DNA from: Anaerolineae bacterium
GTDB taxonomy: Bacteria; Chloroflexota; Anaerolineae; DTLA01
Length of the DNA: 48,276 bases
Direction of reading: 5' to 3'
Assembly: GCA_029907165.1 (NCBI GenBank)
Contig: JARYMK010000003.1
Span: 1-48,276 of the forward strand
In this document: positions 19,878 to 48,276 of the stretch, in pieces
Position numbering within the stretch: the first letter of the stretch is position 1
Layout of the letters: the number at the start of each line of letters is the position of its first letter
Position numbers and translations under genes: made by a program
Notes under the pieces: generated by a model
What the model was told of the DNA's origin: nothing
Database searches by the model: none
The model's input: the letters and a program-made list of their open reading frames with translations, nothing else

Positions 19878-19963
19878 AGATTATCATTGGTGTTGTTGCC
19901 TCACTGCTTCCTCGTCGCCCGAAACACTTGGAAGGCTGCTTGTACCAACCGAGGAGGTGTAAG

Positions 19964-22132: not shown

Positions 22133-23925
22133 AGGCGGAACAGGGATCGCTTACGTCTCCGATGACCACTGGGTCCGACGCACAGGCATCAAACTGCCGC
22201 TACGTTTACAGTCCACAGGGCAACCTGGGCTCGGTGGAACTACAGTTCTCAGTCGCCCAGGCCGGAAACTACTACTTCTGGGCGCGGGGCATGGGCCTCA
22301 CGGACTACAACGAGAACTCCTTTTGGGCCTCTGTGGACGGTGGGGCGCGCTACCATTATGAGATCCCTGCCCCGGGTGGACAATGGCACTGGAGCCGTCT
22401 CTTTGGCGTCGCCACGCCTATTTGGCTCACGGCTGGCTGGCATACCATACGCTTTGACGGGCGCGAGCAGGGAGCACGATTGGACAAAGTACTGATCGTG
22501 AACACCGTGAATTACCAGCCTGGTGGTCAGGATGTAACGCCTTGTGTCATGCCAACAACCACGCCAACACGAAGCCGCACACCACAACCAACCGCGACAC
22601 CGACTCGCACGCGAACGCCAACGGCGACACCATCCATACCCTGCGGTCCCAACCAATGGCGTGCGGAGTACTTCAACAACGAGACCCTCTCGGGGCCACC
22701 CGTCGTCGTCAAATGCTACGACCAAGTCAATTTTGAGTGGGCAACTGGCGCGCCGGAGCCCGGGGTGAATGCCGACCATTTCTCAGCGCGCTTCTCGCGG
22801 TCTGTGAACTTCGCCGCGGGACGCTACAGATTCACCGTCTTCCGCGACGATGGTGCTCGCCTGTACCTGGACGGTACGCGGATTTTGGACGAATGGCGAT
22901 GGGGGCGTGAAGAGCACACGGTTGAAAGGGATATTCCCGCCGGTGCGCACGATGTGGTGCTTGAGGTCTACGAGATAGATGGCTGGGCCGCGGCGAAACT
23001 CTCCTGGCAACTGCTGGGCAGCAATGCGCCCTCCATTGGGAGCATTCAACCCGCCTGCGGCCGCAGCGACGCCTACCAAACCGTCAACTTCCAGACTGTG
23101 GCATCCGACCCCGATGGATGGCAGGACATCAAAATCATCTACTTTGTGGTCAATACCGCACCATCTTTTGCTGGCGGGGCGGCAGTGGCGTACAACGCCG
23201 AAATCAACCGTATGGTGATGAGGAACGAGAGTGGCACATCGTGGCTCGTGGGCGGGGCGCCAGGCTCCTCGGGCACGCTTGAGACGTCGCGCGCTCGCCT
23301 GGACATCGGGGCAAGCAGCAGAACTGTGGCGGGGAATCAAATGACTCTCACTTGGAGTCTGCAATTCAAGGCGCCGATGACAGGGCCTCAGAATCTGTAT
23401 ATGCTCGTGGTGGATAGGGCGAACAGACACACTGGCTGGCAGGTGGTTGGTTCGTGGGGAGTCGGCACCAGCGGCTCGCCGCCGTGCGTGGGCGCGGTAA
23501 CGCCGTCCAGCGGGCAGAGTGCGGCAGGGGTGCAAGCGCTCGTGGATACCGAATTCGGCGACCCGGATGGCTGGGAGGATCTGAAGATCGGGTACTTCTT
23601 GATCGCGCCGATACCGAACGCCAATTCGGACTGTGTTTACCTGGCGTACAACCAGGATGTGAACAAGATACTCCTGCGCAACGACCAGAACAACGCATGG
23701 TTGGGCGGATTCGCTCCGGGGACAAACGCCACGATCCAGAACAGCAATGTGATCGTTGACGTAGCCGACTGCTCGGTGAGCCATACAGCGCAGGGCCTTA
23801 CCGTCCGCTGGGCATTGCGCTTCAAGAATGAGTTCCGCGAGACTTACACCATGTACGCGATGGCGTTGGACAACCGCAACTACGTGGCCACGTGGCAGAA
23901 GAAGGGTACCTGGACGATACAGTAA
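22039..23925 (+). CDS. C-terminal continuation of the secreted modular protein (PPC end, CBM-like, PA14, duplicated domain)
   Basis: This ORF begins mid-domain: RVKVVGYAGAYSATDSYILH (from about 22034) is the usual final strand of the PPC domain left unfinished by the preceding ORF, so this is not an independent gene start and no Shine-Dalgarno is seen. A CBM-like beta-sandwich follows (AEQGSLTSPMTTG ... WHTIRFDGREQGARLDKVLI), then a Thr/Pro/Arg linker, a PA14 domain (WRAEYFNNETLSGPPVV ... RYRFTVFRDDGARLYLDG), and two related domains of about 130 aa, each opening with a Cys-containing strand and DPDGWQDIKI or DPDGWEDLKI. Probably extracellular and carbohydrate- or surface-binding. A terminator follows. 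Confidence 0.75.
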   Translation: MVGYAGAYSATDSYILHIGIESPQTEQKIGLEAEQGSLTSPMTTGSDAQASNCRYVYSPQGNLGSVELQFSVAQAGNYYFWARGMGLTDYNENSFWASVDGGARYHYEIPAPGGQWHWSRLFGVATPIWLTAGWHTIRFDGREQGARLDKVLIVNTVNYQPGGQDVTPCVMPTTTPTRSRTPQPTATPTRTRTPTATPSIPCGPNQWRAEYFNNETLSGPPVVVKCYDQVNFEWATGAPEPGVNADHFSARFSRSVNFAAGRYRFTVFRDDGARLYLDGTRILDEWRWGREEHTVERDIPAGAHDVVLEVYEIDGWAAAKLSWQLLGSNAPSIGSIQPACGRSDAYQTVNFQTVASDPDGWQDIKIIYFVVNTAPSFAGGAAVAYNAEINRMVMRNESGTSWLVGGAPGSSGTLETSRARLDIGASSRTVAGNQMTLTWSLQFKAPMTGPQNLYMLVVDRANRHTGWQVVGSWGVGTSGSPPCVGAVTPSSGQSAAGVQALVDTEFGDPDGWEDLKIGYFLIAPIPNANSDCVYLAYNQDVNKILLRNDQNNAWLGGFAPGTNATIQNSNVIVDVADCSVSHTAQGLTVRWALRFKNEFRETYTMYAMALDNRNYVATWQKKGTWTIQ

Positions 23926-32805: not shown

Positions 32806-33732
32806 CTACTCCTCGCAGATGGGCGCAAATAGCCCGGCCCAGTAGCCCAGCACCTTCTGGGCGCGGCAGATGGCCAGTTCGGGGGGCTGGCCGGCCCGCC
32901 GTGCCGAGACCCACGCGGCCGGCTCACGCACGACAGCAAGCCCTGTCCGCGCTACGGCCATCCCCAGCGCGAAAGCCCAGCCTCGGTGGATGCGGTCCAG
33001 CAACGCTAACGTCTTCCCTTCCCACCAGGCGCGGCGGTGCAGGAAGGCTGGCGTGAGCCGCGACGCCGGGATGATGTGGTGGACGACGGCGCGGGGCGTG
33101 TAGGCCACCGTGCCCCCCGCGCGAAGCACGCGGCGGAACAGGTCTATCTCCTCGCCCGACAGGAGCGAGCCGGGTTGCCGTCCCAGGGCCGGGCGGAATA
33201 GGCCCACGCGGTCAAATACGAAGCGACGGATGGCCAGGTTCGCGCCGCATGGGAATATAGGCCCGCGCAGGGAGTGGATTTCATCGCCCAGGTCTATGAT
33301 GCTGAGCAAGTAGCGCAGTTGGGGATGCAGCCAGGCGGGCGCTTCGCCGGGCCAGCGGGGGAGCACGCGCCCGCCCAGGCACCACGCTCCCGCGCGCTCC
33401 AAGTCCTCAGCCATCGCCGCGATCCACCCCGGCGCGGCCACGGCGTCGTCGTCCAGGAACGCGAGGGCGTCGCCCTGGGCGTGGGCCACGGCGGCGTTGC
33501 GCGCCCGCGAGAGGCCGGGCGTCGGCTCGCGCACCACACGCACGCGCGCCACCAGACTGTCCGGGAGCGTAACCCGGGGCACGGGGTTGTTATCCACGCA
33601 GAGGATTTCCACGCGCGCGCCCGCGGGCGGTTCCTGGGCTGCCAGCGACGCCAGCACATCAGCCAGATGCGGGGCCTCGCCGTAGGTGCACACCGCCACG
33701 GTTATGGCGCGCACGGGCCTGCCATCGGTCAT
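32806..33732 (-). CDS. Family 2 glycosyltransferase
   Basis: A 308-aa GT-A enzyme: ITVAVCTYGEAPHL at the start, CVDNN (45-49), DxD-type FLDDDAVAAPGW near 92-103, and the acceptor-side motif LSGEEIDLFRRVLRAGG. One hydrophobic segment near residues 255-270 may associate it with the membrane. Its ATG overlaps the O-antigen ligase stop by 4 nt. It likely builds the same polysaccharide as the neighbouring ligase; the sugar is unknown. Confidence 0.9.
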   Translation of the reverse strand: MTDGRPVRAITVAVCTYGEAPHLADVLASLAAQEPPAGARVEILCVDNNPVPRVTLPDSLVARVRVVREPTPGLSRARNAAVAHAQGDALAFLDDDAVAAPGWIAAMAEDLERAGAWCLGGRVLPRWPGEAPAWLHPQLRYLLSIIDLGDEIHSLRGPIFPCGANLAIRRFVFDRVGLFRPALGRQPGSLLSGEEIDLFRRVLRAGGTVAYTPRAVVHHIIPASRLTPAFLHRRAWWEGKTLALLDRIHRGWAFALGMAVARTGLAVVREPAAWVSARRAGQPPELAICRAQKVLGYWAGLFAPICEE

Positions 33733-35295: not shown

Positions 35296-36283
35296 CTATG
35301 CGTCTCCGACGGCTAGCGCGTGAATTTCCCGCGCCACGCGCAGGGCAGCCTTCCCGTCCAGCGGCCCTGCGTAGGCCGGCAGGAACGCCTCGCGGGCGCG
35401 TGCCAGGCGCTGGCGTGCGTCTCCGTCTTGGAGCACTTCCCGGAGACGCCGGGTGAGTTCCTGGGCGCTCTGTGCCCGGAGCGCAGCGCCGGTTTCTGAG
35501 TACGGGATGGGTTCGGGCATGATGCCCAAGTCCAGCAGCACCACCGGCTTGCCGAGGGCGATGGCCTCCAGCGCCGTGGACGAGATGAGCGTAACCAGGA
35601 CATCCGCCCTCCACAGCAGGCTCATCACATCCGCATCGCGGGTCATCGTCCATTCGGGCGAGAAGTCGTCGCCCAGCCAGCGGCGCGTCTGTTGCAGGTC
35701 TTCGGCAGGGTGGAGTTTGGCGACCAGGTGATGCCCCGCGCCCAGGCCCCTCACGCCGTCGGCTACCGTGCGCCAGATGCTCCTGGCCTCCGCCTCGCCG
35801 CAAACATTGTAGCGCAGGTATGGCTGCGAACAAAATAGAACGATCCTCTCGCCTTCGGGAAGATTCGGGGCATCCGGCCCTTCGTCCGGCGCGGTAGCCT
35901 GCCGCATGGCGTGGAGGGCGTCGTAGCGGGGCTGCCCGGTAACAGTGATGCGCTCGGCCGGGACCCCCTGCCCGGCCAGCCAGGAGGCCACGGCATCGCC
36001 CATGACGGCGATGCGGTCCGCGCCGTTCTGGCCGTAGGGTTTGGGGTCGGGCAGGCGCAAGCCGAGCAGGGTCAGCGCAGCGCGGGCCACGCTCCGTGGG
36101 AGCGACACGGGCGGCGCGGGCATTGGCCGCAGGGCGATGACGCCGTCCTGCACGAGGAGCGACGGGATGCCCAGGCGACGCGCCTCGGCGATGAACAGCC
36201 GCTCCAGAATCCCCATGTCATTGCCCAGGATGACGACGCTGGGGCGCTCCGCACGCAGGAACGTTCGGACAGCCCGCCGCCCC
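35296..36283 (-). pseudogene. GT-B-type glycosyltransferase / capsule-type transferase missing its 5' end
   Basis: Family-like sequence reads in one frame from about 36283 (AVRTFLRAERPSVVILGNDM) through an in-frame ATG at 36216 to the stop at 35296. The C-terminal part shows RIVLFCSQPYLRYN, LVAKLHPAEDLQ and LISSTALEAIALGKPVVLLD, as in CDP-glycerol-transferase- or epimerase-like GT-B folds. The N-terminal half expected of the family is absent; upstream DNA abruptly becomes a glycoamylase-like gene in a different frame. The 306-aa ORF from 36216 might be translated but would lack half the fold. It belongs with the ligase and GT2 genes downstream. Confidence 0.7.
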
Positions 36284-36785
36284 TGTCCGGGTTGTAGGCC
36301 ATGCGGAACAGCGTCCTGTCGCCCCGCGTGAAGACGATGAAGTGCCAGTCCACGCGCTCCAGCAGTTGTTGCGCCAGGTCGGCGACTTCCGCGTCCTGGT
36401 CAAAATAGGCGGCGGCAGTGATGACCCCGTTCAGGCAGAGGGCGGTGTCTATCGTGGAATACTCGCACTTGCGGAACCGCTCGCCGTTCTCCATGTGCAG
36501 GAAGTGGGCGAAGAATCCGCGATGGTGCGCGGCGGCATTGCAGAGCGTGCGGAGCGTCCCGCGCACGATGGCGCGCGCCTCGGCTGCGGGCAGGAAGCCG
36601 CGCTCGCAGGCGATCACCCACGCGGTGAGCGCGAAGCCCACCGCCGCGATGGATGCGACGCTCGGCCGCTTGGTGGAATCCGCCGTCAGCCCGAAGCCGG
36701 GGCTGTCGGGGGTCAGATTGGTGTAGTCCAGGAAGAATTGGAGGGAGCCCCTCAATTCCCTGTCAAGAAGCATAGGGGCCTTCAT
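36072..36785 (-). pseudogene. Glycoamylase-family (PF10091-like) protein, truncated after about 165 residues
   Basis: Begins with ATG 36785, 1 nt after the LacI stop, so coupled to it. Residues 1-165 align by eye with the lipoprotein at 37783-39171: SPGFGLTADSTKRPSVASIA vs SPGYGLIRDRYPGSPGISSI, YSTIDTALCLNGVITAAAYF vs VSSIDTAILLMGVLSVGEYF, and TLFRMAYNPDRGGG vs KMFYMAYRPEKGFE. Likeness ends at PDRGGG (about 36285), after which the frame reads through a glycosyltransferase gene in the wrong frame. The second half of the domain is missing. No signal peptide, unlike its paralogue. Confidence 0.7.
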
Positions 36786-36786
36786 G

Positions 36787-37776
36787 TCATATCACCGGAT
36801 GCGACGCGAGATTTCGGCTGGAAGACTGGCGCTGAATGAACTCGGCGGGAATACGGCGGGTATCAAAGGCAGGCCCGTTTTCCAGGAAGTCAATCAGGCG
36901 CGCGGCGGCGGCCGATCCCCATCCGACGCGCGAGACGCGGACTGTGGACAGGGATGGCTGCATGTACCGGGCGAGGGGAATGTCATCAAAGCCAACGATG
37001 GCCACATCGTCGGGCACGCGAATGCGGTGCTCCTTCAACGCCTCAATGAACCCGATGGCCATCTGGTCGTTGGCGCAGAAGATGGCCTCTGGCAAGTTGC
37101 CGGACGCAATCGCCCCTTGCGCGGCCTCGTAGCCGGACGGCTGGGTGAAATTCCCCTCGTAGCAGACGACCGAGAGGCCGTTCCTCTCCGCCTCTTCCAG
37201 GAAGGTTGTCCGCCGCTCGGCGTTGTCAAACGAATCGGCAGCGCCGGACACGAAGGCGAGCCGCCGCGCTCCCTGCTCGTACAGGTGCCGGAACACCTCC
37301 CGCGTGCCGGTGGGGTTATCCACCAGCACCGGAAAGACAAAATCGGCTTCCATGTAGCGATCCAACGTAACGATGGGGAATCGCTTCCAGGCCAGCCGCG
37401 CGATGAGGTCGCTGGAAATCTTCGTATCAAACACGATGGCGCCATCCACCTGGCGGTAGGTCAGGATGCGGCGCGTGGTGCGCGTCTCGGGGCAGATGAG
37501 GAGTTCATAGTCGGTTTGCAGGATGGCGTTGTGGATGCCCTCCAGAACCTCCTCGTAGAACAGGCCGCCCAGTCGGGTGATGAAGACCCCGATGGTGCGC
37601 GTTCTGCGCTTCCTGAGGTGCCGCGCGAACGCATTCGGGTGGTAGTTGAGTTCTTCGGCTGCCGCCAGAACGCGCTGGCGGGTGGCCTCGCTGATGTTCC
37701 CCTTGCCATTCAGCGCGTAGGACGCGGTGGTGATGCTGACACCTGCCCTCTTGGCGACGTCTTTGATGGTGATCAT
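36787..37776 (-). CDS. LacI-family transcriptional regulator
   Basis: A 329-aa regulator: LacI helix-turn-helix (TIKDVAKRAGVSITTASYAL, hinge NYHPNAFARHLRK, residues 2-57) followed by a periplasmic-binding-protein-like sugar-sensing domain (about 60-329; IGVFITRLGGLFYEEVLEGI, FDDIPLARYMQPSLSTV). It is encoded inside the operon between two glycoamylase-like genes (6-nt gap upstream, 1-nt gap downstream), so it most likely controls this operon in response to a sugar made from the glycan. Its operator would be near the operon start, which is not preserved in the window. Confidence 0.93.
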   Translation of the reverse strand: MITIKDVAKRAGVSITTASYALNGKGNISEATRQRVLAAAEELNYHPNAFARHLRKRRTRTIGVFITRLGGLFYEEVLEGIHNAILQTDYELLICPETRTTRRILTYRQVDGAIVFDTKISSDLIARLAWKRFPIVTLDRYMEADFVFPVLVDNPTGTREVFRHLYEQGARRLAFVSGAADSFDNAERRTTFLEEAERNGLSVVCYEGNFTQPSGYEAAQGAIASGNLPEAIFCANDQMAIGFIEALKEHRIRVPDDVAIVGFDDIPLARYMQPSLSTVRVSRVGWGSAAAARLIDFLENGPAFDTRRIPAEFIQRQSSSRNLASHPVI

Positions 37777-37782
37777 CGGCGC

Positions 37783-39171
37783 TTACTCTGCTCGCTTCGT
37801 GAACTGAAGGCGCTCCAGGCCCTTCTGGATGTGCGCGTTCCGCATCGTGATGGTGTAGATGAAATCGCTCTGGTAGTTCGCCAGCATGAGCAGGGAGATG
37901 CCCTTATCTATGCCGATCACGTCGGTCGCGAACCAGCCTCTGCTCAAGTTGAACGCATCGCGGAACCCGTAGGGGCCTTTGAGCCGCTCAAACGAATAGT
38001 AGTGTACCATAGCCTGTTCGGCCTGTTTCGGCAAAAACACGATGGAGCCAATGGCGCCGGCCGGCGGCACCGTATCGTCCACGTAGTGCGACTTGTAGTC
38101 ATAGCCCGACGGCGGCGCGCCGTAGCGGCCCTCGTATCCATCGGGGCCGTCGCATGCCGTCAGCCCCCAGGCCAGCGGGCCGATGGTTTCGTACTTGTCA
38201 TCCACGGCCACGGCGAAATTGTAGTGCGCCAGCGAAGCCTCCACCGAGTTGTCAAACCAGTTGACCCCGTCCCGGTCGTAGTAGTTTCTGAAATCTATCC
38301 ACGCGTGGCTGAACTGGTAGGTGAAAATGGAGCCGAACCACGAGTGGATGAACGGCTTGCCGTCCCCGTACTTGGCGCGGTGTCTTGTGAACGAGTAGTA
38401 AACGGCGGGGTCAATGGGGTGAGTATCCGAACCGGCCGCGAGAATGTAGAGCATCAGTTGCTCGGCGTAGAAATCCCAGTATCCCTCAAACCCCTTTTCG
38501 GGCCTGTAGGCCATGTAGAACATCTTGCGCGACTTGTCCACGAACCACGGCCAGTTGACCTCATCGTAGATGCGCTGGGCCTTGGCCTCAATGTCGCCGC
38601 CGAAGTACTCGCCCACCGACAGGACGCCCATCAGGAGGATGGCCGTGTCAATGCTGGAGACCTCGCTGTTCCAGGCCCGCTTGCCGCTACGCATGTCCAG
38701 GTAGTGGTAGTAGAACCCGTTGACGCGCTCCAGCGAGAGCAGCGTGTCCAGCGTCCCGCTGACCCGCTCGTAAACCTCCTGCTGGGACACATACCCCTTC
38801 TGGATGCCGACAAGGTATGCGGTCAGCCCGAAGCCCACCGACGCAATGCTGGAAATCCCCGGCGAGCCCGGATACCGGTCGCGGATGAGTCCGTAGCCCG
38901 GGCTGCCCGCTTCGGTGTTGGCCTGCTCCCAGAAGAATCGGAATGCCCCCGACATCTCAAACTCAATCACGTCGCCCACGGGCACCGGCGTCGGCGTGGC
39001 CGTCGGCGCGGCCGTTGGCGTGGGCGTCGGCTCGGGTGTCGCCGACGGGGTCGCGGTGGCCGCCGGCGTGTCGGTCGCCGCGGGGACGACCGCGGTCGGC
39101 GTGGCCACGGGCGCAGCGCACCCGCTCACCAGCAGCAGCAAGACAAGCGTCAGGGCAAGGGTTTTATTCAC
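37783..39171 (-). CDS. Glycoamylase-family (PF10091-like) lipoprotein, putative glycoside hydrolase
   Basis: 462 aa from GTG 39171, chosen because it gives a clean lipoprotein signal MNKTLALTLVLLLLVSGC (lipid Cys18); an upstream TTG would add seven residues. A Thr/Pro/Ala linker (about 20-65) leads to an alpha/alpha-barrel-like domain (about 70-460) with GSPGYGLIRDRYPGSPGISS, SSIDTAILLMG, FYMAYRPEKGFEGYWDFYAE and FDNSVEASLAHYNFAVAVDD. PF10091 includes GH144 endo-beta-1,2-glucanases, so a beta-glucan target is possible but not shown. The start overlaps the upstream permease stop by 8 nt. Confidence 0.82.
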   Translation of the reverse strand: MNKTLALTLVLLLLVSGCAAPVATPTAVVPAATDTPAATATPSATPEPTPTPTAAPTATPTPVPVGDVIEFEMSGAFRFFWEQANTEAGSPGYGLIRDRYPGSPGISSIASVGFGLTAYLVGIQKGYVSQQEVYERVSGTLDTLLSLERVNGFYYHYLDMRSGKRAWNSEVSSIDTAILLMGVLSVGEYFGGDIEAKAQRIYDEVNWPWFVDKSRKMFYMAYRPEKGFEGYWDFYAEQLMLYILAAGSDTHPIDPAVYYSFTRHRAKYGDGKPFIHSWFGSIFTYQFSHAWIDFRNYYDRDGVNWFDNSVEASLAHYNFAVAVDDKYETIGPLAWGLTACDGPDGYEGRYGAPPSGYDYKSHYVDDTVPPAGAIGSIVFLPKQAEQAMVHYYSFERLKGPYGFRDAFNLSRGWFATDVIGIDKGISLLMLANYQSDFIYTITMRNAHIQKGLERLQFTKRAE

Positions 39172-40171
39172 CGACGATCCCCGTCCTTTCAACGGATTCC
39201 ACGAACCACTTCTGCAGGATGAAGTACATGATGAGCAGCGGCAGGATGTTCAGGAACGTGCCGCTCAACTTGACCGCCTCGTTGATGCGGTCAAAGATGT
39301 TGACCATCCCCGGCGGGTACAGGTTCTCGTAGGCCTGGACGAACTTGGACAGTTGCATGGGCAAGGTCTGAATGCCACCCTCCAGGAAAACGACCGTCAG
39401 GTAGGTCTCGTTCCAGTACCAGACGACGGAAAAGATGAAGGACACGATGTATGCGGGGATGGCGCTTGGCACGGCGATCTTGAGGAAGACCTTGAGGTCG
39501 GAAGCGCCGTCCAGCCGCGCCGCCTCTTCCAGCACCTTGGGCAGCGACAGGAAGGTCTGGTAGAAGATCAGGATGAAGATCGCGCTCCGGAACCCCTGAC
39601 CCATGGACGCGGGCAGGATGAGGCACAGGATGTTGCCCAGAAGCCCCAACTGCCGGTATGTCAGCATCTGCGGGATGACCGTGTTCTGGGGCGGGATGAT
39701 GAACGTGGCCAGGATGAGCGCGAACAGCAGGCCCTTGCCCCAGAACCGGTAGCGCGCGAGGCCGTAGCCGATGACCGAGCACACCATGGTCTGGATCACC
39801 GACGGCACGACGCTCACGAGGATGGAAGCGAGCAGGGTTGACGGGTAGTTCAGGACGCGGAACGCCTTGACATAATTGCCTAAGTACCATTGGGTCGGCA
39901 CCCATTGCACCATCGGGTTCAGCAAGTCGGTGGGACTCTTGAAACTGGTGATGAGCATGAACAGGAGCGGGTACAGGTAAACGAACCCGATGGCCACCAG
40001 CACGGCGTAGAGCAGAACGGTAACGATGAGGCCGCGCCTGGATCGCGAGCCGAAGAGGAAGCCCCTCACGGTGTCCTGATGCTGCCGGGCCCACCGCGCG
40101 GCGTTCGCCACGTGCGTCGCCACCAGGCCGAGCCGAGCGTTGTCTCTCAGAGATCGCAGTCGGGATGTCAT
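39164..40171 (-). CDS. Carbohydrate ABC transporter permease (MalG-like)
   Basis: A 335-aa inner-membrane permease with six segments and the cytoplasmic EAA loop EEAARLDGASDLKVFLKIAV ahead of P-x-P. The N-terminal extension of about 50 residues is polar and charged. It overlaps the MalF-like gene by 4 nt (ATGA) and the glycoamylase lipoprotein start by 8 nt. It should form a heterodimer with the MalF-like protein and need an ATPase encoded elsewhere. Confidence 0.92.
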   Translation of the reverse strand: MTSRLRSLRDNARLGLVATHVANAARWARQHQDTVRGFLFGSRSRRGLIVTVLLYAVLVAIGFVYLYPLLFMLITSFKSPTDLLNPMVQWVPTQWYLGNYVKAFRVLNYPSTLLASILVSVVPSVIQTMVCSVIGYGLARYRFWGKGLLFALILATFIIPPQNTVIPQMLTYRQLGLLGNILCLILPASMGQGFRSAIFILIFYQTFLSLPKVLEEAARLDGASDLKVFLKIAVPSAIPAYIVSFIFSVVWYWNETYLTVVFLEGGIQTLPMQLSKFVQAYENLYPPGMVNIFDRINEAVKLSGTFLNILPLLIMYFILQKWFVESVERTGIVGE

Positions 40172-41058
40172 GCGGACACCCTCCTGACGCGCGATGCCAA
40201 CAGAAGGTAGATGAGCAGCAGGATCAGCACAAGGGCCGCCAGGTACAGGAAGGACATGGCGCTGGCGTAGCCGATCCCGCCCCTGATGACATACGTCTGG
40301 CTGTAGATGTACTTGACGACCTTGTTCTCGGAGAAGTGCGACAGCGTGATGACAGTGTAAATCGCCACGACGATGTTGGTGGTGGACAGGGATGGCAGGG
40401 TAATCTTCCAGAACGCCTCCCACGCCGATGCGCCGTCAATCGCCGCCGCTTCGTAGATGCTCTTGTCTATCTTCTGCAGGCTGGCCAGATAGATGAGAAT
40501 CTGCACGCCGGAAAACCACAGGATGAGGATGAAAGAACTCAACAGGTACTGTACCGGATTCCGGATGGCGGTCGGGAGTTGCGCCAGAAAGTCCAGCAGC
40601 GCCGCCGACCGGGCAATCTGGGGCACGGAGGCCGCGCCCTGTGCCACGAGTTCCTTGATCACCGGGCCGCTGGTGATGACCACCGGCAGGAAGAAGATAA
40701 TCCTGAATGCTCCCCTGAGCCTGAACTTCAGATTCAGGAACATGGCGATGAGCATGGAGAAGATGAGCACAATCGGCACGGATACCAGGGTCTCAATACT
40801 GTATTCCACCAGCAGTTGCACGAAGGTAGGGTCGGTGAACAGGGCTCGCGTGTAGTTCTTCCACTCGGCGTACTGCATTCGGATTCCCGTGGCCTCCACG
40901 ACCACGTCGTGAAGGCTGTACCGGAACGTCTGCACCAGCGGCGTCAGCGTGAAAAGGGCGAACCCGATGATCCAGATGAGGACGAACAGGTATCCGTACG
41001 ACGCCTCGCGGAGTCGGTACCTGGTCTGAATCGGGCGGAAACCCCTGCGCACGTTCAT
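40168..41058 (-). CDS. Sugar ABC transporter permease (MalF-like)
   Basis: A 296-aa permease with six membrane segments and the EAA motif YEAAAIDGASAWEAFWKITL. It pairs with the MalG-like permease directly downstream. ATG 41058 overlaps the DUF5696 gene stop by 4 nt. No solute-binding protein is encoded beside it, unusual for this CUT1-type importer class. Confidence 0.92.
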   Translation of the reverse strand: MNVRRGFRPIQTRYRLREASYGYLFVLIWIIGFALFTLTPLVQTFRYSLHDVVVEATGIRMQYAEWKNYTRALFTDPTFVQLLVEYSIETLVSVPIVLIFSMLIAMFLNLKFRLRGAFRIIFFLPVVITSGPVIKELVAQGAASVPQIARSAALLDFLAQLPTAIRNPVQYLLSSFILILWFSGVQILIYLASLQKIDKSIYEAAAIDGASAWEAFWKITLPSLSTTNIVVAIYTVITLSHFSENKVVKYIYSQTYVIRGGIGYASAMSFLYLAALVLILLLIYLLLASRVRRVSA

Positions 41059-43247
41059 GGCACTGCCTCCCTGAGGAGCGCATCCCTGGCCGGGATGACA
41101 AGGCCGTCGGCGCGGAAGGGCTTGTCGTTGTAGTTGACGATGATCTGCTTCCCGTTGCTATACGTGGTCGCCACCACTCCTTCGGCCAGATTCTGCCTTG
41201 CCACGATACTGGCGCCCTTGACGGGGGCCAGCAAGCGATTCAACCATGCGTAACTCTCGCGGATTTCGTCCCCCAACTGGTGGAAGGCCGAGAGGTAAAT
41301 CCAACTGGAGCGGGTGTTGAGAATCCGCGCCGTCTCCTCGTAACTGACGAAGAACGACGGATACACGCCGAAATCGGCATGGCGCAGAAGGTCGCCCCGC
41401 ACGTCGGGGGAAAAGTTCAGCGCAGTGCCGAAGTAGGGGACGTAGCCCGACAGCGCGATTTGCAGGAACGGCACAGGCCCACTGGTGTACGTGTAGCCGC
41501 TGTCCGTCAGGGGCATGTCGTAGTACGCGGCTGCGTAGCCCAGCGCGTAATCGTTGGGCGTGTAGAATGCCAGGCTTCCGTCGGTCTGGGCCAGCAGTTC
41601 CCGATAGTGGCCGATGGCGTCCTCGCGGTTCACGACGCGGCCACCCCTGAAGTCGCTGTAGAGCGTGTCGCCAATCCCGTCCAGCGCCAGGCCGGCCTGG
41701 AGTTTGGCGCTGACGTCCCGCCGCAGGGAAGCGAGGCGATCCCGCAGGGCCGCAAGAGTGAAGTAATAGTTGGCTTTGTTGCGGTTGTAGCCCTCCATGT
41801 ACAGGCCCGTGATGGACATCGCCAGGTCGTAGCGCGAGGAGTAACCGCCTTCTCCCTTCAGCGCAGCCTGCGGGTCCAGGTAGAGGTAGAACGTGCCTCC
41901 CTTGGCGGCCACCTGCTCGGAGAACGCCCGCAACTCGGCGAGCGTGCCCAGTTTGGGGTCCAGCGCCAGGCGGGCGGGCGGCATGGCGGAAGCGCCCAGG
42001 GGTTGCCAGCCGTAGTAGATGACCTGCGGACTTCCCACGTCCAGCGCCGCGAACATGTCGCTCATCTGGCGGATCGTGGTCATGGGGATGGTGCGGTACC
42101 AGAACAGGACCCTTTCGCGTTCCGCGCCCAGGAACTCAAGCCTAATGCCGATCCTGTCGCCCACGTCGGCGCGCTTGTGCAACCGCCCGCTCTGGAGCAG
42201 GTACTGCTGGTAACTCCGCGCCATGCCCACGTAGTCCGCGTCCTTGCCCGCCAGGAACCGGTAGTGAACCTTCACGTCAAACGCATTGGTTCGGGGCTGC
42301 AAGACCGTAACCCCGTCGCCGGCGCGGCTGGTGGGCTGGAAGTAACTCTCGTTGTAGATGAAGGTATTGTAGATGAAATTGAAATTCGTGATGATGCCCG
42401 AGGGGTGCGCCCGGATTTCCCCGTAAGATGCGCCTTTCTCCAGGACGGCGATGTAGGCGTTCTGCCCCGGCCCGTGCACCATGCCGATGACCGGGATGGA
42501 CATGGAGTAGGGTCGCCGAACGGTGGGGTCATACGGCAGGCTGGTGAGCATCCCCAGGTCGGCGCCGTAGTATCGCCCGTAGAACATGTTCTGCGCTTTG
42601 GTCGTGGCGGCGAACTGGATGAGGGTGCCGCAGCCATCGGGGATGAACATGTAGCCCGGCACCTGGTCGCCCCGGGTCGCGCCCATGAACGGGTACAGGT
42701 GGAGCAGGCCGAGTTTGAACTCCCCACGTTCCGCGATGGAACTGAACGGCACTTCCACGCTCACGCCTGTATCCTCCAGGCGGAGCACAAGCCCCACCGA
42801 GATAGCCGGCTGGCTGAAGGTTACAAGCGCCTCAATGCCCTGGTCAATCGGCTTCACGTCCAGGGTATGTTCGGCGTTGGTGATGGACGCGCGTCGGCTG
42901 ACGGCCTTCTGGTCCAGGTAGTCAATGCTGAAGCCGCTCTGCGCGAACGCCTGCCACGTCCTGTTGAGGCGGTCGCCGGGCGCCAGTTCGTCCAGATTGG
43001 AGTGCCAGACGTATCCGTTCCGCTTGTCCACCACCTTGAACGCCAGCGTGGTCTTGTTCACGTAGAGTTGGAACATGGCGTTCTCGGCAACGCGGTCGTA
43101 GGACGCCGGTATCTCGCCGTCCAGCCGCCGGAACAGCGCCGAACCTGAGCCGGCGCCTGTGGCCGAGGCCGCCGCCACCTCGGGGCACAGCCCCAGAATC
43201 AGGCCGATCGCCATCAGAACCCGAGCCAGTCTCCACACCCTAGCCAC
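41055..43247 (-). CDS. DUF5696 domain-containing secreted protein, putative glycan-active enzyme
   Basis: A 730-aa protein with a signal peptide (about 1-27, ending AAAS) and a long beta-rich N-terminal half followed by a barrel-like region (about 390-640; [18 protein letters not shown]-type segments, [17 protein letters not shown]). It starts at GTG 43247 with AGAGGT upstream and overlaps the NHL-YIP1 stop by 8 nt. As I recall, DUF5696 genes recur beside sugar permeases, chiefly in Firmicutes; the activity is undescribed. The layout resembles glycoside hydrolases with an N-terminal supersandwich and a TIM barrel, but no catalytic pair is assigned. Confidence 0.72.
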
Positions 43248-45246
43248 GCAGTCTTACCTCTCGCGAAATCGTTACAACGAAGTCAAACAGTTGATTGAAC
43301 AGCACGTACAGGATGTACCCCGTGAGCAGCATGACCGCCATCGTGAACACCGTGTACAGGATGTTGCGGATGGTCTCCGACACGGAGTAGTTGTGAATCT
43401 CCTTCACCATCAGGAAGAGCATCAGCGCGACCCAGGCATCCACCAGCCGGATTGAGAAGGTGTAGATGAAGACCTCGTTGAGCGTCAACACGTTGGACAG
43501 CAGCGCGATGGGCAGGGTGAACAGGGCGTAGGGGAACAGGCTGTAGGCCGTGCCGATGATCACGTCTCGGACGCGGCCCTCGCCGTCGCTGATGGTGGAG
43601 ACGAGGTAGTTGGCGCTGTTCCACAGCACGATGAGCAGGGCCGAGTACAGAATCTCATTCTGCGGCCGGATGGCCGACGGGACAGGGTAGCGGTTGAAGA
43701 TGAACCCCGTCAGGTACAGCGCCAGCACCCTGCTCGCGATCACCCAGGCGTACAGCAGGAAGGCGAAGGTCAGGCTCCCGCGCAGTTTCTGCTTGATGTA
43801 GTAGAAACTATCCGCCGGCTGTTTGATGAAGCGGAACATGAACACGAAATCGTCCACAAGCCGCACCCGCGCCAGCGCCCTCACGCCGTTCCTGACGGGG
43901 GCAAACCACCCGTAGCGGCGGTCAACACGCGCCAGCGCGCTCTGCACCACGCCCAGGCCGATCATGGCCAGGATGGCGCTGCCCAGGTACCGCTGCAACA
44001 GGTTGTTGCGCAGTTCCCAGAAGGCTTCGGAGTAGCCGTTCCTGTCTTCCGCATACCGGTAGTTCACGAACGCCTGGGCGTAGTCGCCTTCTTTGAAGTA
44101 GGCGTCGGCGATGGCCTGATAGGCCATTCGGTACGCGCCGTTGTACTTCAGCACCTGCTCAAAATACGGCTTGGCTTCCCTGTAGAAGCCCTCGGTGTAC
44201 AGGCGAACACCCTCGTGAACCAGGGTGGCAAACCTGGTGGCCCGATAGATGACGATGGCGTTCTTGTCCTTGTCCAGCACGTAGAGGTCCTTGTCGTGGT
44301 ACGCGATGGCGGTGGGATTGCGCAGGGTTCCCAGGCGCTGTTCGCCCCTATCCTTGGCCCCGAAGACGAACAGCAGCATGCCCTTGACGTCGTACTCGTA
44401 GATCAGCCCGTCTGCGTCCACGGCGACCACCAAGCCGGTGTCGCTGACGTCAATATCGCGGAACGTGGTTGACCCGTAGGCGTCCGGGAAGATGTTGTCG
44501 CCCGCCACCGTGAAGCGGCGGATCGCCCGCGTTCGCGCCGTGCCGGCCGTTACGGTGAACACCATGGAATCCGGGTCAATGGCCACGTTGGACGGCGAGG
44601 CCGCCTCGCTCTTGATGAACTGGGCCAGTTGCTCCTTGGTCAGGAACATCCTTTGCAAAATCATCTTGAGCGACATGGTGGCCGGGTTCGCGCCGAAATA
44701 CCCGATGAAGTTGCCGTTGAGGTTCATCTTGACCAGGCCGTTCACCGAGCCTTCGCTGACCACGTAGAGATTCTGGCGGACATCCACGGCGATCTTGCGG
44801 GGCAGGAATTGCGTGTCCTTGCCGAAAAGCGGTTCGCTGGGCCGGCCAAACTGCTTCCGAACGTTCCCGTCGGAATCCAGAATCACGATGGCGTTGGCCT
44901 TGGCGTCGGCCACGTACAGCGTCCCCTCACCGTCCACGTAAATCCCCGTTGGGCCTTTCAGCGCGCCCTTGCCATACGAGGCGACCTCGGCGAAATCCCG
45001 CAGAACGAGAATGCGGGCGTTGCCGGTATCCGCGATGTAGATGGTGCCATCGCGGGCGATGAACATGTCTTCCGCGCCGGATATGGGGAGGTCCACCTCG
45101 GCGACGGGGATGTAGGCGTCCTGGGTCAGGTGCAGCCGCCCGCCCGGCCCCATGGCGCGGGTGGTGTAGGGGGCTTCGGCGCTTGCGCCCGCTGCCAACG
45201 CCACGTATGCGATTAGCACCGCGAGGATCAGCGCGATACGCTTCAT
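43240..45246 (-). CDS. NHL beta-propeller - TPR - YIP1 membrane fusion protein
   Basis: A 668-aa protein. Order: signal peptide (1-23), NHL-type propeller (about 45-335) with repeated units such as [32 protein letters not shown] and [16 protein letters not shown], two TPR-like helices pairs (about 345-415; [20 protein letters not shown]), a membrane helix (about 425-442), then a YIP1-type domain with five or six helices (about 475-655). The propeller should face outside. It is embedded between permease genes (ATGA overlap with the upstream one). No enzymatic motif; a receptor or scaffold role in uptake is inferred. Confidence 0.8.
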
Positions 45247-45905
45247 TTGATTCCCGAATGCGACATGGTGCTCATGACCTGGCTCTGCAGGAAGATGAAC
45301 ATGAGCAGGTTCGGCACGAACATGATGAGCGTGGCGGCTGCGGCAAGGCCCTGGCCGGCCACGATGTTGGCCCCCGAAGCGGTGGACGTCAGGGTGGTCA
45401 GGTAGAACGCAAAGGTCTTCAGCGTCTCGTTGTTGATGTACAGCGCCGACGTGTCCGCGTTGTTCCAGGTGGCCTGGAAGGTGAGGATGGCGATGGTGGC
45501 GATGGCTGGCTTGATCATCGGCAGGACAATCCGCCAGTAGATGTCCAGGTCGGATGCGCCGTCAATCTGGGCGGCCTCAATGACCTCGTCGGGGACGCCG
45601 TCGGTGAACTGCTTCATCAGGAAGACGCCCACCGGCATGACCAGGGCGGGGAGGATGTGCACCAGGAACGAGTCCATCAGGTGCAGCCGCACGATGACCA
45701 GAAAACGCGGAATCGTTACCGCGATGGGCACGAACATCAGGGCCACGGTGTTGATCGCGAACAGCGTCTTCTTGAGTTTGAACCGCTTCTTGGAGAGCGC
45801 GTAGGCCGCCGCCGTGGAGACCAGGATGGACGCAGCCACCGATGCCGCCGTGATGAGAACGCTGTTGAACAGGTAGCGGCTCACGGGCACGCCCGAAGTT
45901 GACAT
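45243..45905 (-). CDS. Carbohydrate ABC transporter permease (MalG-like), 5'-truncated
   Basis: 220 codons from ATG 45905, but permease-like coding continues upstream in frame ([17 protein letters not shown]) to about 45985, where an in-frame TAG appears. The first membrane helix and cytoplasmic N-terminus (about 50-70 residues) expected of the family are missing. The rest holds four or five helices and the EAA loop [20 protein letters not shown]. Its usual MalF-type partner would be expected upstream but is replaced by unrelated WD40/kinase genes. Probably nonfunctional as it stands, or broken by misassembly. Confidence 0.8.
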
Positions 45906-46057
45906 AAGACCGAACAGGTCCGTGAAGTTCTTGAGCGTGGGGTTGACGACGAAGAAGCCCGGCGTGCCGGGACCGAGCAGAACCTAGCCCCGCGAGGCCG
46001 CTACAGCACGTCCACCCCGGGCGAACGCGCACAGTCTCCGCTGCAGCAGAACTCCGC

Positions 46058-46669
46058 CTACTCCTTCGCCACGCCCCACAGGCGCACGGTGCCATCCATG
46101 GACCCCGATGCCAGGAGGGAGCCATCGGGCGAGAACGCCACGCTCTCCACCCGATGCGTGTGTCCCTCCAGGGAGCGCACGAGGGAGCCGTCGGCGACGC
46201 GCCAGACCCGGACGGTGTAGTCGGCCGACCCCGAGGCCAGGAGGGAGCCATCGGGCGAGAACGCCACGCTGTACACAGGGCTAGTCGTCTCCAGGAAGCG
46301 CGCTTCCTTCAGCGTTCCGGCATCGTACAGGTATATCCCAAGGGAACTTCCAGCAGCCAGGAGCCGCCCATCGGGGGAATATGCCACTTGCATTATCGCG
46401 CCCTTGCCCCAGCGCGCCAGTTGCGTCATCCGCTCGGCGTTGGACGGGGAGATGACGCCCGCCGGTACCGGCACCGGCGTACCGGCCAGTACAGGGAGTT
46501 GCGGCGTGGTCGTGGATGGTACTGGCGTATCGGTCGGGTGCGGCGTGGTGCTCGCTTTTGCCCGATACGGCGGCGGGGCCGTGGGCGTCGCCTTCGGCGC
46601 GCAGCCGATGAGCAGCGATGCGACGACGACCAGTGTCGCCAGAATGGTAACAATTTTCCTTGCAGACAT
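46058..46669 (-). CDS. WD40-repeat lipoprotein with about three blades
   Basis: A 203-aa protein with a lipoprotein signal (LLIGC, Cys23), a Thr/Pro/Ala linker (about 25-75) and about three WD40 units (IMQVAYSPDGRLLAAGS, VYSVAFSPDGSLLASGSADY, VESVAFSPDGSLLASGSMDG), ending LWGVAKE. A closed propeller needs six to eight blades, so it is incomplete unless it oligomerises. Two units share an identical 34-nt stretch 126 nt apart, so repeat collapse in assembly or recombinational loss is likely. AAGGAGA precedes the ATG. It follows the Ser/Thr kinase gene by 115 nt; 45986-46057 holds no recognisable gene. Confidence 0.78.
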   Translation of the reverse strand: MSARKIVTILATLVVVASLLIGCAPKATPTAPPPYRAKASTTPHPTDTPVPSTTTPQLPVLAGTPVPVPAGVISPSNAERMTQLARWGKGAIMQVAYSPDGRLLAAGSSLGIYLYDAGTLKEARFLETTSPVYSVAFSPDGSLLASGSADYTVRVWRVADGSLVRSLEGHTHRVESVAFSPDGSLLASGSMDGTVRLWGVAKE

Positions 46670-46784: not shown

Positions 46785-47900
46785 TTACACTTCCCAAGGC
46801 CCCCGCAGCAACTGAACGACATCCTCCACCGCGACCTGGAAATACTCACGCATCGTTTTCTCGTCGCGCTCGTACTCCCCGCCGCCGGTTCCGTCGCCAA
46901 GACGTTCCCGTATCTCACGCGGCGTCAGGCTGTGGTAGTCGGTCCAGTCCACATCGGGCTTGCGTCCCGCGGTGTCGGGCGTCATCACGGGCCTGCGCTT
47001 CTCGGCCTGGTGGACCTCCTGCTCTCGCCTTGCGCGCTCCTCTGCTTCCGCGCGGTGCTGGGCCTCTTGCTGCCGTCTATTCTCTGCCTCTTGCAGTCCC
47101 GTCTGCAGTGCCGCGGCCATTTCCGCCGCGGTCTCATACCGCTCCCAACGGTCCTCCTGGAGCGCCTTCGCCAGAATGTCCTCCAACCACGATGGCACTG
47201 CAGGGTTCAGCGAACTGGCCCGCATCCCCGGCCGAACCCTCTGGTACTTCTTCTCCGTAAGCATCTCAAACAGCACACACCCCACCGTGTACAGGTCGCT
47301 GGCGGGGGTCAAGTACCCCAGCGTCCGATCCTGCTCCGGCGACCTGTACCCCAATGTCCCTGGATGTGGCTGTCCCGTTCCCATGGATCTTCCGCTCTCC
47401 CCCGTCTGCGCCAGCCCGAAGCCGGCCAATTTGGCGTGACCATCCTCGGTGAACAGGATGTTGCTGGGTTTGATGTCTCGGTGCACGATATCCAGTTTCT
47501 CGTGCGCCACCTCCAGCGCAGCCAGGACCTCCAGCGTTACGCGCACCGCCTCGTCCACCGGCAGGGGGCCTTTCTTCAGCCTGTCGGCTAGGGTTCCACC
47601 GCCGCAGTATTCCATGACGAGCAGGGTCTGGCCCTCGTGCTCTTCCACCGTCAACACGCGCACGACATTGGGCACATCCGCCTTGAAGATGCGGCCGCTG
47701 AGGCGGAGTTCGCGCTGGAAACGCGTCTCCAGTTCCTCGCGCTCCATGGGCGACAGGACGGGCAGGGGTTCCTTGATGGCGACCTCCAGCCCGCGTTTCA
47801 CCTCTTGCGCCAGCCACACGCGGGATTGCCCGCCTTCACCGAGCAGGCGGATGATTTCATACTTGCCGTTGCAAATGGTCTGTCCTTCATCAATAGGCAT
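46785..47900 (-). CDS. Ser/Thr protein kinase-like protein with altered DFG motif
   Basis: A 371-aa Hanks-type kinase domain (about 14-280) plus a Glu/Gln/Arg-rich coiled coil (about 285-325) and a short acidic tail. The Gly-loop LLGEGGQSRVWL, ATP-anchoring Lys43 (VAIK), catalytic HRD (140-142) with DIKPSN, and the GTLGYRSPEQ segment are intact. The metal-binding Asp of DFG is Gly160: the motif reads LAGFGLAQ (codon GGC instead of GAC). That predicts loss or strong reduction of activity, or a pseudokinase. No membrane segment. ATG 47900 has GGAGGG 7 nt upstream; the longer ORF is less likely. Confidence 0.88.
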   Translation of the reverse strand: MPIDEGQTICNGKYEIIRLLGEGGQSRVWLAQEVKRGLEVAIKEPLPVLSPMEREELETRFQRELRLSGRIFKADVPNVVRVLTVEEHEGQTLLVMEYCGGGTLADRLKKGPLPVDEAVRVTLEVLAALEVAHEKLDIVHRDIKPSNILFTEDGHAKLAGFGLAQTGESGRSMGTGQPHPGTLGYRSPEQDRTLGYLTPASDLYTVGCVLFEMLTEKKYQRVRPGMRASSLNPAVPSWLEDILAKALQEDRWERYETAAEMAAALQTGLQEAENRRQQEAQHRAEAEERARREQEVHQAEKRRPVMTPDTAGRKPDVDWTDYHSLTPREIRERLGDGTGGGEYERDEKTMREYFQVAVEDVVQLLRGPWEV

Positions 47901-48126
47901 GGCGGACCCTCCGAAGGAAAACAAGAGGAATGGAACAGGTGAGCAACGATCGCAGTCGCCTTTTTGCCAACGAGATGCAGGACTCGGAGCCGATGGCGCA
48001 GGGTGAGATGTCACGGCGGTTGCACATAGCGGTTAGCGACAAGCGAACAAGCGTTGTCATGAATGTCCCCCGGCGCGAACGTTCTAGCATCATTAATATC
48101 ACATTCGGCACCCTGGTGCAAGGGAT

Positions 48127-48276
48127 TGTACTCGTTCAGTACCTTAGTGACACATCCTCCTTTCCCAGGATTCCATTGTGCACGAGGTACTGGAGTGGTG
48201 TCAAGTATCCCAACGCCTGGTGCGGCCTAACCGTGTTGTAGATCTCCTCCCATTCGCTCTGAGCGGCCCGTATCCC
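48127..48276 (-). mobile_element. Insertion sequence, one end
   Basis: The transposase stop lies inside TGTACTCGTTCAGTACCTTA (from 48127), which begins with TGTA, contains a small GTAC/GTAC inverted repeat and could be the terminal inverted repeat. The other end is outside the window, so the boundary is a guess. Between here and the kinase start (47901-48126) no gene is recognisable. Confidence 0.5.
48136..48276 (-). CDS. Transposase C-terminal fragment (IS3/IS481-type integrase core)
   Basis: The last 46 codons of a DDE transposase that runs off the right edge: AQSEWEEIYNTVRPHQALGY followed by LTPLQYLVHNGIL and the stop TGA (48138-48136). The WEEIYNTVRPHQALGYLTP pattern is the usual end of the rve/rve_3 integrase domain, including the final part after the catalytic Glu. 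Family assignment between IS3 and IS481 cannot be made from this piece. Confidence 0.9.
   Translation of the reverse strand, partial: GIRAAQSEWEEIYNTVRPHQALGYLTPLQYLVHNGILGKEDVSLRY

What the first reader, a model, noticed from the sequence alone, without database searches (positions are those of the whole stretch)
36785..45985. Coupled operon: NHL-TPR-YIP1 fusion, DUF5696 protein, duplicate permeases, glycoamylase-type enzymes and LacI, but no binding protein or ATPase
Seen: eight minus-strand genes linked by 4-8 nt overlaps or 1-6 nt gaps. Known: CUT1 sugar importers normally pair MalF/MalG permeases with a solute-binding lipoprotein; PF10091 includes GH144 beta-1,2-glucanases; YIP1 and DUF5696 are poorly characterised. 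Inference: the exported NHL propeller tethered to a YIP1 membrane domain could capture or present substrate, and DUF5696 plus the glycoamylase lipoprotein could process an extracellular glucan before import. This would be an unusual receptor-importer arrangement. The absent binding protein may instead have been lost at the broken 5' end.
Basis: partly seen in the sequence, partly recalled or inferred. Interest (0 to 1): 0.8.

Follow-up and report, generated by a model that had tools for sequence, protein, structure and literature searches.

The report
Fragment of a beta-1,2-glucan uptake operon
The genes are the middle part of a widespread sugar-eating operon of Anaerolineae bacteria, cut at both ends so that its binding proteins are missing here; the intact version pairs two ordinary sugar importers with two unstudied proteins, a membrane-anchored propeller and a sugar-enzyme-like protein that seems to have lost its active site.

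Summary
The eight-gene, minus-strand, tightly coupled set is real. Its outer two genes are fragments: a MalG cut at 45964 and a PF10091 enzyme cut at 36275.

In the same genus the operon is complete over two overlapping contigs: GH94 - SBP1 - SBP2 - MalF1 - MalG1 - NHL-TPR-YIP1 - DUF5696 - MalF2 - MalG2 - PF10091 lipoprotein - LacI - cytosolic PF10091 - GH35. The order recurs across Anaerolineae. So the missing binding proteins are a truncation effect, and the "receptor instead of binding protein" reading fails.

Four enzymes or binding proteins match beta-1,2-glucan proteins of known structure, so the substrate is most likely beta-1,2-glucan oligosaccharides.

Still unexplained is a fixed core (NHL-YIP1, DUF5696, second permease pair) that also occurs in Paenibacillus and Butyrivibrio with other enzymes. 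All 32 surveyed genomes with DUF5696 also have NHL-YIP1. DUF5696 is a remote GH129 relative without the catalytic acid/base Glu. Yip1 proteins have a precedent as ABC-transporter assembly subunits (YknW).

Best reading: a CUT1 importer with a membrane-anchored, glycan-docking accessory complex. The operon identity is solid; the accessory role is inferred.

The parts
45243..45964 (-). MalG1: C-terminal part of a CUT1 permease; first transmembrane region missing (possible internal start ATG at 45905)
   Evidence: BPD_transp_1 57 bits; homology to the intact 305-aa MalG1 of the same genus ends at 45964; 19 synonymous against 2 amino-acid-changing codons versus that copy
43240..45246 (-). NHL-TPR-YIP1 fusion (668 aa): signal peptide, exported NHL beta-propeller (about 30-336), TPR-like helices (338-397), transmembrane helix (about 416-434), basic loop, Yip1-type membrane domain (468-668)
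   Evidence: (NHL 45.7 bits; Yip1 26.6, below cut-off), AlphaFold2 pLDDT 75, Foldseek NHL of TRIM2 E 5.5e-14, split homologues in Butyrivibrio
41055..43247 (-). DUF5696 (730 aa): exported, remote GH129/GH101-type glycosidase-fold protein, probably without catalytic acid/base
   Evidence: PF18952 558 bits; profile match to GH129 NagBb E 2e-9; hhalign to GH129 99.6% over 579 columns; residue check
40168..41058 (-). MalF2: CUT1 permease with intact EAA loop
39164..40171 (-). MalG2: CUT1 permease with intact EAA loop (start ATG at 40171, 4-nt overlap with MalF2)
37783..39171 (-). PF10091 lipoprotein, GH144-like endo-beta-1,2-glucanase
   Evidence: PF10091 204 bits; best solved relative XcSGL/XCC2207, 227 bits; lipobox VSGC
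36787..37776 (-). LacI-family regulator
   Evidence: PF00356 and PF13377
36275..36785 (-). 5' fragment of the second, cytosolic PF10091 enzyme (frame runs on to 36072 in unrelated sequence)
   Evidence: HMM match; 96% identity to G002:C83 and 95% to G002:C112, ending at 36275

Best explanation
The region is the middle of a conserved Anaerolineae operon for using beta-1,2-glucan, cut at both ends in this contig by deletion, rearrangement or misassembly. In the intact operon a GH144-like lipoprotein cuts extracellular beta-1,2-glucan; solute-binding proteins SBP1 and SBP2 capture the oligosaccharides; two CUT1 permease pairs import them, driven by a shared MalK-type ATPase encoded elsewhere; a cytosolic PF10091 enzyme, a GH94 phosphorylase and a GH35 glucosyltransferase degrade them; LacI regulates. 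The second permease pair carries an accessory complex. NHL-TPR-YIP1 anchors a beta-propeller and TPR platform at the outer face of the cell membrane and, through its Yip1 domain, helps assemble or tune the transporter. DUF5696, an exported GH129-fold protein that looks catalytically disabled, docks there and holds glycan for hand-over. Shown by sequence: operon content and order, substrate class by homology, fold relationships, absence of the catalytic Glu. Inferred: docking, hand-over and the assembly role.
For: Intact operon in the same genus: G002:C60 overlaps C83 and C112 by 77 bp. [quoted passage not shown] The Ignavibacterium album beta-1,2-glucan cluster holds the same enzyme set (PMC8861115). 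DUF5696 and NHL-YIP1 co-occur in 32 of 32 DUF5696-positive genomes. Core shared with Paenibacillus and Butyrivibrio. DUF5696 is GH129-like with variable nucleophile and substrate positions and no acid/base Glu. Yip1 precedent: YknW modulates assembly of the ABC transporter YknXYZ (PMC4887032). EAA loops found in most copies of all four permeases.
Against: No binding, transport or expression data. The DUF5696 structure model is poor (pLDDT 50), so loss of catalysis rests on sequence alignment at about 17% identity, and the identity of the GH129 catalytic pair is recalled, not tested. In the beta-1,2-glucan clade the nucleophile-position Asp (D523) is invariant, which fits an enzyme with an altered mechanism. 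Two genomes have NHL-YIP1 without a detected DUF5696: G239 (gene runs off the contig) and G100 (no DUF5696 in the 532 bp that follow); in G266 the two genes lie on separate contigs. YknW belongs to an exporter, not an importer.
Confidence: 0.5

Rival explanations
1. DUF5696 is an active exported glycosidase of a new GH129-related family that trims surface-bound oligosaccharides before import; NHL-YIP1 merely anchors it.
For: GH129/GH101 relationship; D523 (nucleophile position) invariant in 15 of 15 beta-1,2-glucan-clade members and D532, R541, N565, Y567 invariant across all 14 diverse members.
Against: The D523 position is R, N, D or T in more distant members; no Glu at the acid/base position; D566 is not invariant. 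GH129 and GH101 act on alpha-linkages (established knowledge of these families), whereas this operon's enzymes point to beta-1,2-glucan.
Confidence: 0.25
2. NHL-YIP1 and DUF5696 form a sensor or signalling unit that reports substrate or transporter occupancy, rather than taking part in transport.
For: NHL propellers occur as extracellular sensor domains, for example Mycobacterium tuberculosis PknD (1rwl); the pair is fixed in order.
Against: No kinase, anti-sigma or other output domain in the pair; the Anaerolineae operon has its own LacI regulator; the pair directly precedes MalF2/MalG2, usually with a 4-nt overlap.
Confidence: 0.15
3. One reading: NHL-YIP1 is a tethered receptor that replaces the solute-binding protein.
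For: In this window no binding protein is present.
Against: Intact relatives carry SBP genes next to the permeases, including the divergent copies L094-L099 and both Firmicutes loci.
Confidence: 0.05

Closest known systems
Ignavibacterium album beta-1,2-glucan cluster (IALB_1177-1187; PMC8861115)
   Same: GH144-type enzymes, GH94 SOGP-like phosphorylase, GH35 beta-1,2-glucosyltransferase and a sophorooligosaccharide-type binding protein with an ABC transporter.
   Different: The passages read do not mention NHL-YIP1, DUF5696 or a second permease pair; one passage also lists a putative GH3 beta-glucosidase.
Listeria innocua SOGP cluster with Lin1841 sophorooligosaccharide-binding protein
   Same: CUT1-type ABC uptake of beta-1,2-glucooligosaccharides; SBP2 has Lin1841 as its best solved relative.
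   Different: Here SBP2 is about 960 aa with a large N-terminal extension, there are two SBPs, two permease pairs and the NHL-YIP1/DUF5696 pair.
Maltose-type CUT1 ABC importer (MalFGK)
   Same: MalF/MalG permeases with EAA loops, exported binding protein, MalK-type ATPase (here unlinked, probably shared).
   Different: Two permease pairs plus two accessory proteins not known in the maltose system.
YknWXYZ of Bacillus (PMC4887032)
   Same: A Yip1-family membrane protein works with an ABC transporter and modulates its assembly.
   Different: YknWXYZ is a MacAB-like exporter; no NHL or TPR domain is described for YknW.
GH129 (NagBb, ZgGH129) and GH101
   Same: Full-length profile homology and fold order with DUF5696.
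   Different: Acid/base Glu absent in DUF5696; nucleophile and -1 subsite Asp positions not conserved across the family.

Membership tests
Beta-1,2-glucan utilisation locus | GH94 of the SOGP / cyclic-glucan-synthase phosphorylase type | tested here: met
   In intact relatives, best solved match 8rf9/8rf0 (584 bits) above cellobiose phosphorylases (508 bits); absent from the window itself
Beta-1,2-glucan utilisation locus | Endo-beta-1,2-glucanase of GH144 or the same clan | tested here: met
   Window PF10091 lipoprotein best matches GH144 XcSGL at 227 bits; activity not tested
Beta-1,2-glucan utilisation locus | GH35 beta-1,2-glucosyltransferase (IaSGT group) | tested here: met
   7vkw 253 bits, next group 184 bits; in relatives, not in the window
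Beta-1,2-glucan utilisation locus | Growth on or binding of beta-1,2-glucan | not testable with these tools
   -
CUT1 ABC importer | MalF/MalG-type permeases with EAA loop | tested here: met
CUT1 ABC importer | Exported solute-binding protein | tested here: met
   Met in intact relatives; not met in the truncated window
CUT1 ABC importer | MalK-type ATPase with OB domain | tested here: met
   Unlinked: three places in the same genome, two above the cut-off; linked in Paenibacillus
GH129 / GH101 | Full-length fold homology | tested here: met
   hhalign probability 99.6, E 6.6e-24; hmmsearch E 2e-9; Foldseek E 3.4e-14 on a low-confidence model
GH129 / GH101 | Conserved nucleophile Asp and acid/base Glu | tested here: not met
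   Asp position D/R/N/T across 14 members; no Glu at the acid/base site; identity of the catalytic pair taken from memory
Yip1 family (PF04893) | Yip1 domain above the curated cut-off | tested here: inconclusive
   Window protein 26.6 against 28.6 bits; the separate Butyrivibrio homologue 50.4 bits, aligned to the window family at 99.1% probability
NHL propeller | NHL repeats forming a beta-propeller | tested here: met
   PF01436 45.7 bits; Foldseek to TRIM2 NHL E 5.5e-14

The most novel reading that the evidence does not exclude
NHL-TPR-YIP1 plus DUF5696 is a previously undescribed accessory complex of CUT1 sugar importers, shared by Chloroflexota and Bacillota, in which a disabled GH129-fold protein acts as a second glycan receptor docked on a Yip1-anchored propeller and feeds a dedicated permease pair.
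Probability: 0.3. Interest if true: 0.8.

Novelty: new variant of a known kind. Interest (0 to 1): 0.55.

Why it matters
It gives a substrate and an operon context to DUF5696, for which no paper was found in the searched library, and a testable role to a bacterial Yip1-domain protein. It suggests that some bacterial sugar importers need extra surface parts beyond binding protein, permeases and ATPase. It also predicts that many uncultured Anaerolineae live partly on bacterial beta-1,2-glucans. For the first-stage reading it removes the surprise of an importer without a binding protein.

Tried and rejected
Receptor-without-binding-protein model: rejected because intact relatives encode SBPs. 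Search for the missing 5' half (GH94, SBP1, SBP2, MalF1, 5' MalG1) elsewhere in the same assembly: no counterpart, only short weak matches, so deletion and an unbinned or misassembled piece cannot be told apart. PF10091 in the same genome: only the window copy. Structure of DUF5696 from 15 sequences: poor model, not used alone. Search of GH129 in 399 genomes of the phylum: three genomes only, too few for a good GH129 profile; GH129 among plasmids: none. Papers on DUF5696: none; on NHL plus Yip1 with carbohydrate ABC transporters: none relevant. Source and ligand of the closely related solved SBP (22hh) could not be found. The 812-aa plus-strand ORF at 36784-39222 lies antisense over LacI and PF10091 and was set aside, without a separate test, as a probable product of high G+C.
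Full report
Observation. The eight minus-strand frames are present with the stated coupling: MalG1 fragment, NHL-TPR-YIP1, DUF5696, MalF2, MalG2, PF10091 lipoprotein, LacI, and a second PF10091 frame that is only a fragment. Pfam supports the naming except that Yip1 and TPR fall below cut-off in this protein. An AlphaFold2 model (pLDDT 75) shows the expected order: signal helix, propeller, helical pairs, transmembrane helix, then a helical membrane domain. Foldseek finds NHL domains of TRIM2 and Brat. In Butyrivibrio the same protein is two adjacent genes, which independently marks the two modules and suggests that they work together.

The window is a fragment of a larger operon. DNA similarity to the same-genus genome G002 (94-96%) runs from 36275 to 45964 and stops inside a gene at both ends. 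In G002 the complete operon lies on C60 and on C83 or C112, which share an identical 77-bp end with C60: GH94, SBP1, SBP2, MalF1, MalG1, NHL-TPR-YIP1, DUF5696, MalF2, MalG2, PF10091 lipoprotein, LacI, PF10091, GH35. The own assembly holds no counterpart of the missing 5' part, only short weak matches, and no other PF10091 gene. The neighbouring sequence also looks patched: the kinase ORF at 46785-48014 ends with the C-terminus of a creatininase-like gene found intact in G001 and G002. I cannot decide between a true rearrangement and a misassembly. The retained genes still show mostly synonymous changes against G002, so any break is recent or artificial. The absence of a binding protein here therefore carries no functional meaning.

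Conservation. A scan of public genomes gave 14 related loci, all Chloroflexota MAGs; 18 more long loci came from a class survey. Wherever the contig allows, the order is the same, although some loci lack one of the PF10091 genes or have GH35 beyond the fetched stretch. In 396 Anaerolineae genomes DUF5696 occurs in 32, and all 32 also have NHL-YIP1. Two further genomes have NHL-YIP1 only: in G239 the gene runs off the contig, and in G100 the 532 bp before the contig end show no DUF5696; in G266 the two genes lie on separate contigs. Divergent copies (23-27% identity in DUF5696) keep the block NHL-YIP1, DUF5696, MalF2, MalG2. Three of them place the block SBP2, MalF1, MalG1 after it instead of before it, and each divergent copy of L094-L099 has an SBP gene next to the block or in its flank. 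The Paenibacillus and Butyrivibrio plasmid copies have the Anaerolineae order, with other enzymes around. So there are two sub-modules, each probably with its own binding protein. The permease tree shows two old, separate MalF/MalG pairs rather than duplicates; MalG1 as one clade is not ruled out but not shown.

Substrate. [quoted passage not shown] The PF10091 lipoprotein matches best XcSGL, a GH144 endo-beta-1,2-glucanase (PMC12102758). The GH35 matches best the beta-1,2-glucosyltransferase IaSGT, and SBP2 the sophorooligosaccharide-binding protein Lin1841. SBP1 has a close solved relative, 22hh (736 bits), whose ligand I could not find. The same enzyme set forms the Ignavibacterium album cluster (PMC8861115). 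These are homology inferences; activity was not tested.

The two unusual proteins. DUF5696 is exported, with no hydrophobic segment besides its signal peptide. Its profile matches GH129 NagBb (E 2e-9) and aligns full length to GH129-like proteins (99.6%). Foldseek points the same way, but on a poor model. The position of the GH129 nucleophile Asp is D523 here, invariant in the beta-1,2-glucan clade but D, R, N or T elsewhere; the Asp-Gly-Trp motif has Y, F, L, V, E, A or S in place of Asp; the acid/base Glu is replaced by a segment with invariant Asn and Tyr (N565, Y567). The identity of the GH129 catalytic pair is recalled from the NagBb work; the 43-residue spacing in the G037 protein (sequence) fits it. 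This suggests a disabled enzyme that may bind glycan. For the Yip1 domain there is a precedent: YknW modulates assembly of an ABC transporter in Bacillus (PMC4887032; PMC4338810).

Mechanism and alternatives. I favour an accessory complex of a CUT1 importer, with NHL-TPR-YIP1 as anchor and assembly factor and DUF5696 as docked glycan holder. The enzyme and sensor alternatives remain open. The operon identity I hold at about 0.9, the accessory mechanism at about 0.4; the stated 0.5 is for the whole.

Verdict. The headline oddity of the finding (importer without binding protein or ATPase) is explained by truncation and by ordinary unlinked ATPases. What remains is a conserved, apparently undescribed accessory pair of sugar importers in two phyla, worth an experiment.

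Noticed in passing
window 46785-46972 and 46058-46669: The kinase ORF ends with the C-terminus of a creatininase-like gene that is intact in G001 and G002, and the WD40 ORF starts with a lipoprotein leader from the same place; the contig end looks patched together.
   Followed up: partly
window about 48120-48276: The last 150 or so bases recur at the ends of about 30 contigs of the same assembly; probably an unresolved interspersed repeat.
   Followed up: no
window 33081-33157: Identical to the first 77 bases of contig C110 of the same genome, the same length as the contig-end overlaps in G002: probably an assembly branch point (k = 77).
   Followed up: no
L113 and L114 (G002:C83, C112): Two different versions of the operon's 3' half, both overlapping the same 5' contig by 77 bp: two strains or two copies in that MAG.
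   Followed up: partly
L094, L095, L096: The two sub-modules (NHL-YIP1/DUF5696/MalF2/MalG2 and SBP2/MalF1/MalG1) appear in swapped order, with two or three SBP paralogues upstream, at least one with a Tat-type signal.
   Followed up: partly
window 35296-36216: Glycosyltransferase-like ORF that lacks its N-terminal half (profile match starts at 157 of 367), joined to the PF10091 fragment; G001:C40 is collinear with it up to 36285.
   Followed up: partly
window 19928-23925, plus strand: Less G+C-rich stretch (0.58-0.60 against about 0.65) with a CHAP/fn3/crystallin protein and a PA14 protein; possible surface or cell-wall proteins.
   Followed up: no
L022:3489-3623 and several G000 contigs: Lipoprotein leader and Pro/Thr-rich linker DNA of SBP1 is repeated at 74-88% identity at many loci of the genus.
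   Followed up: no
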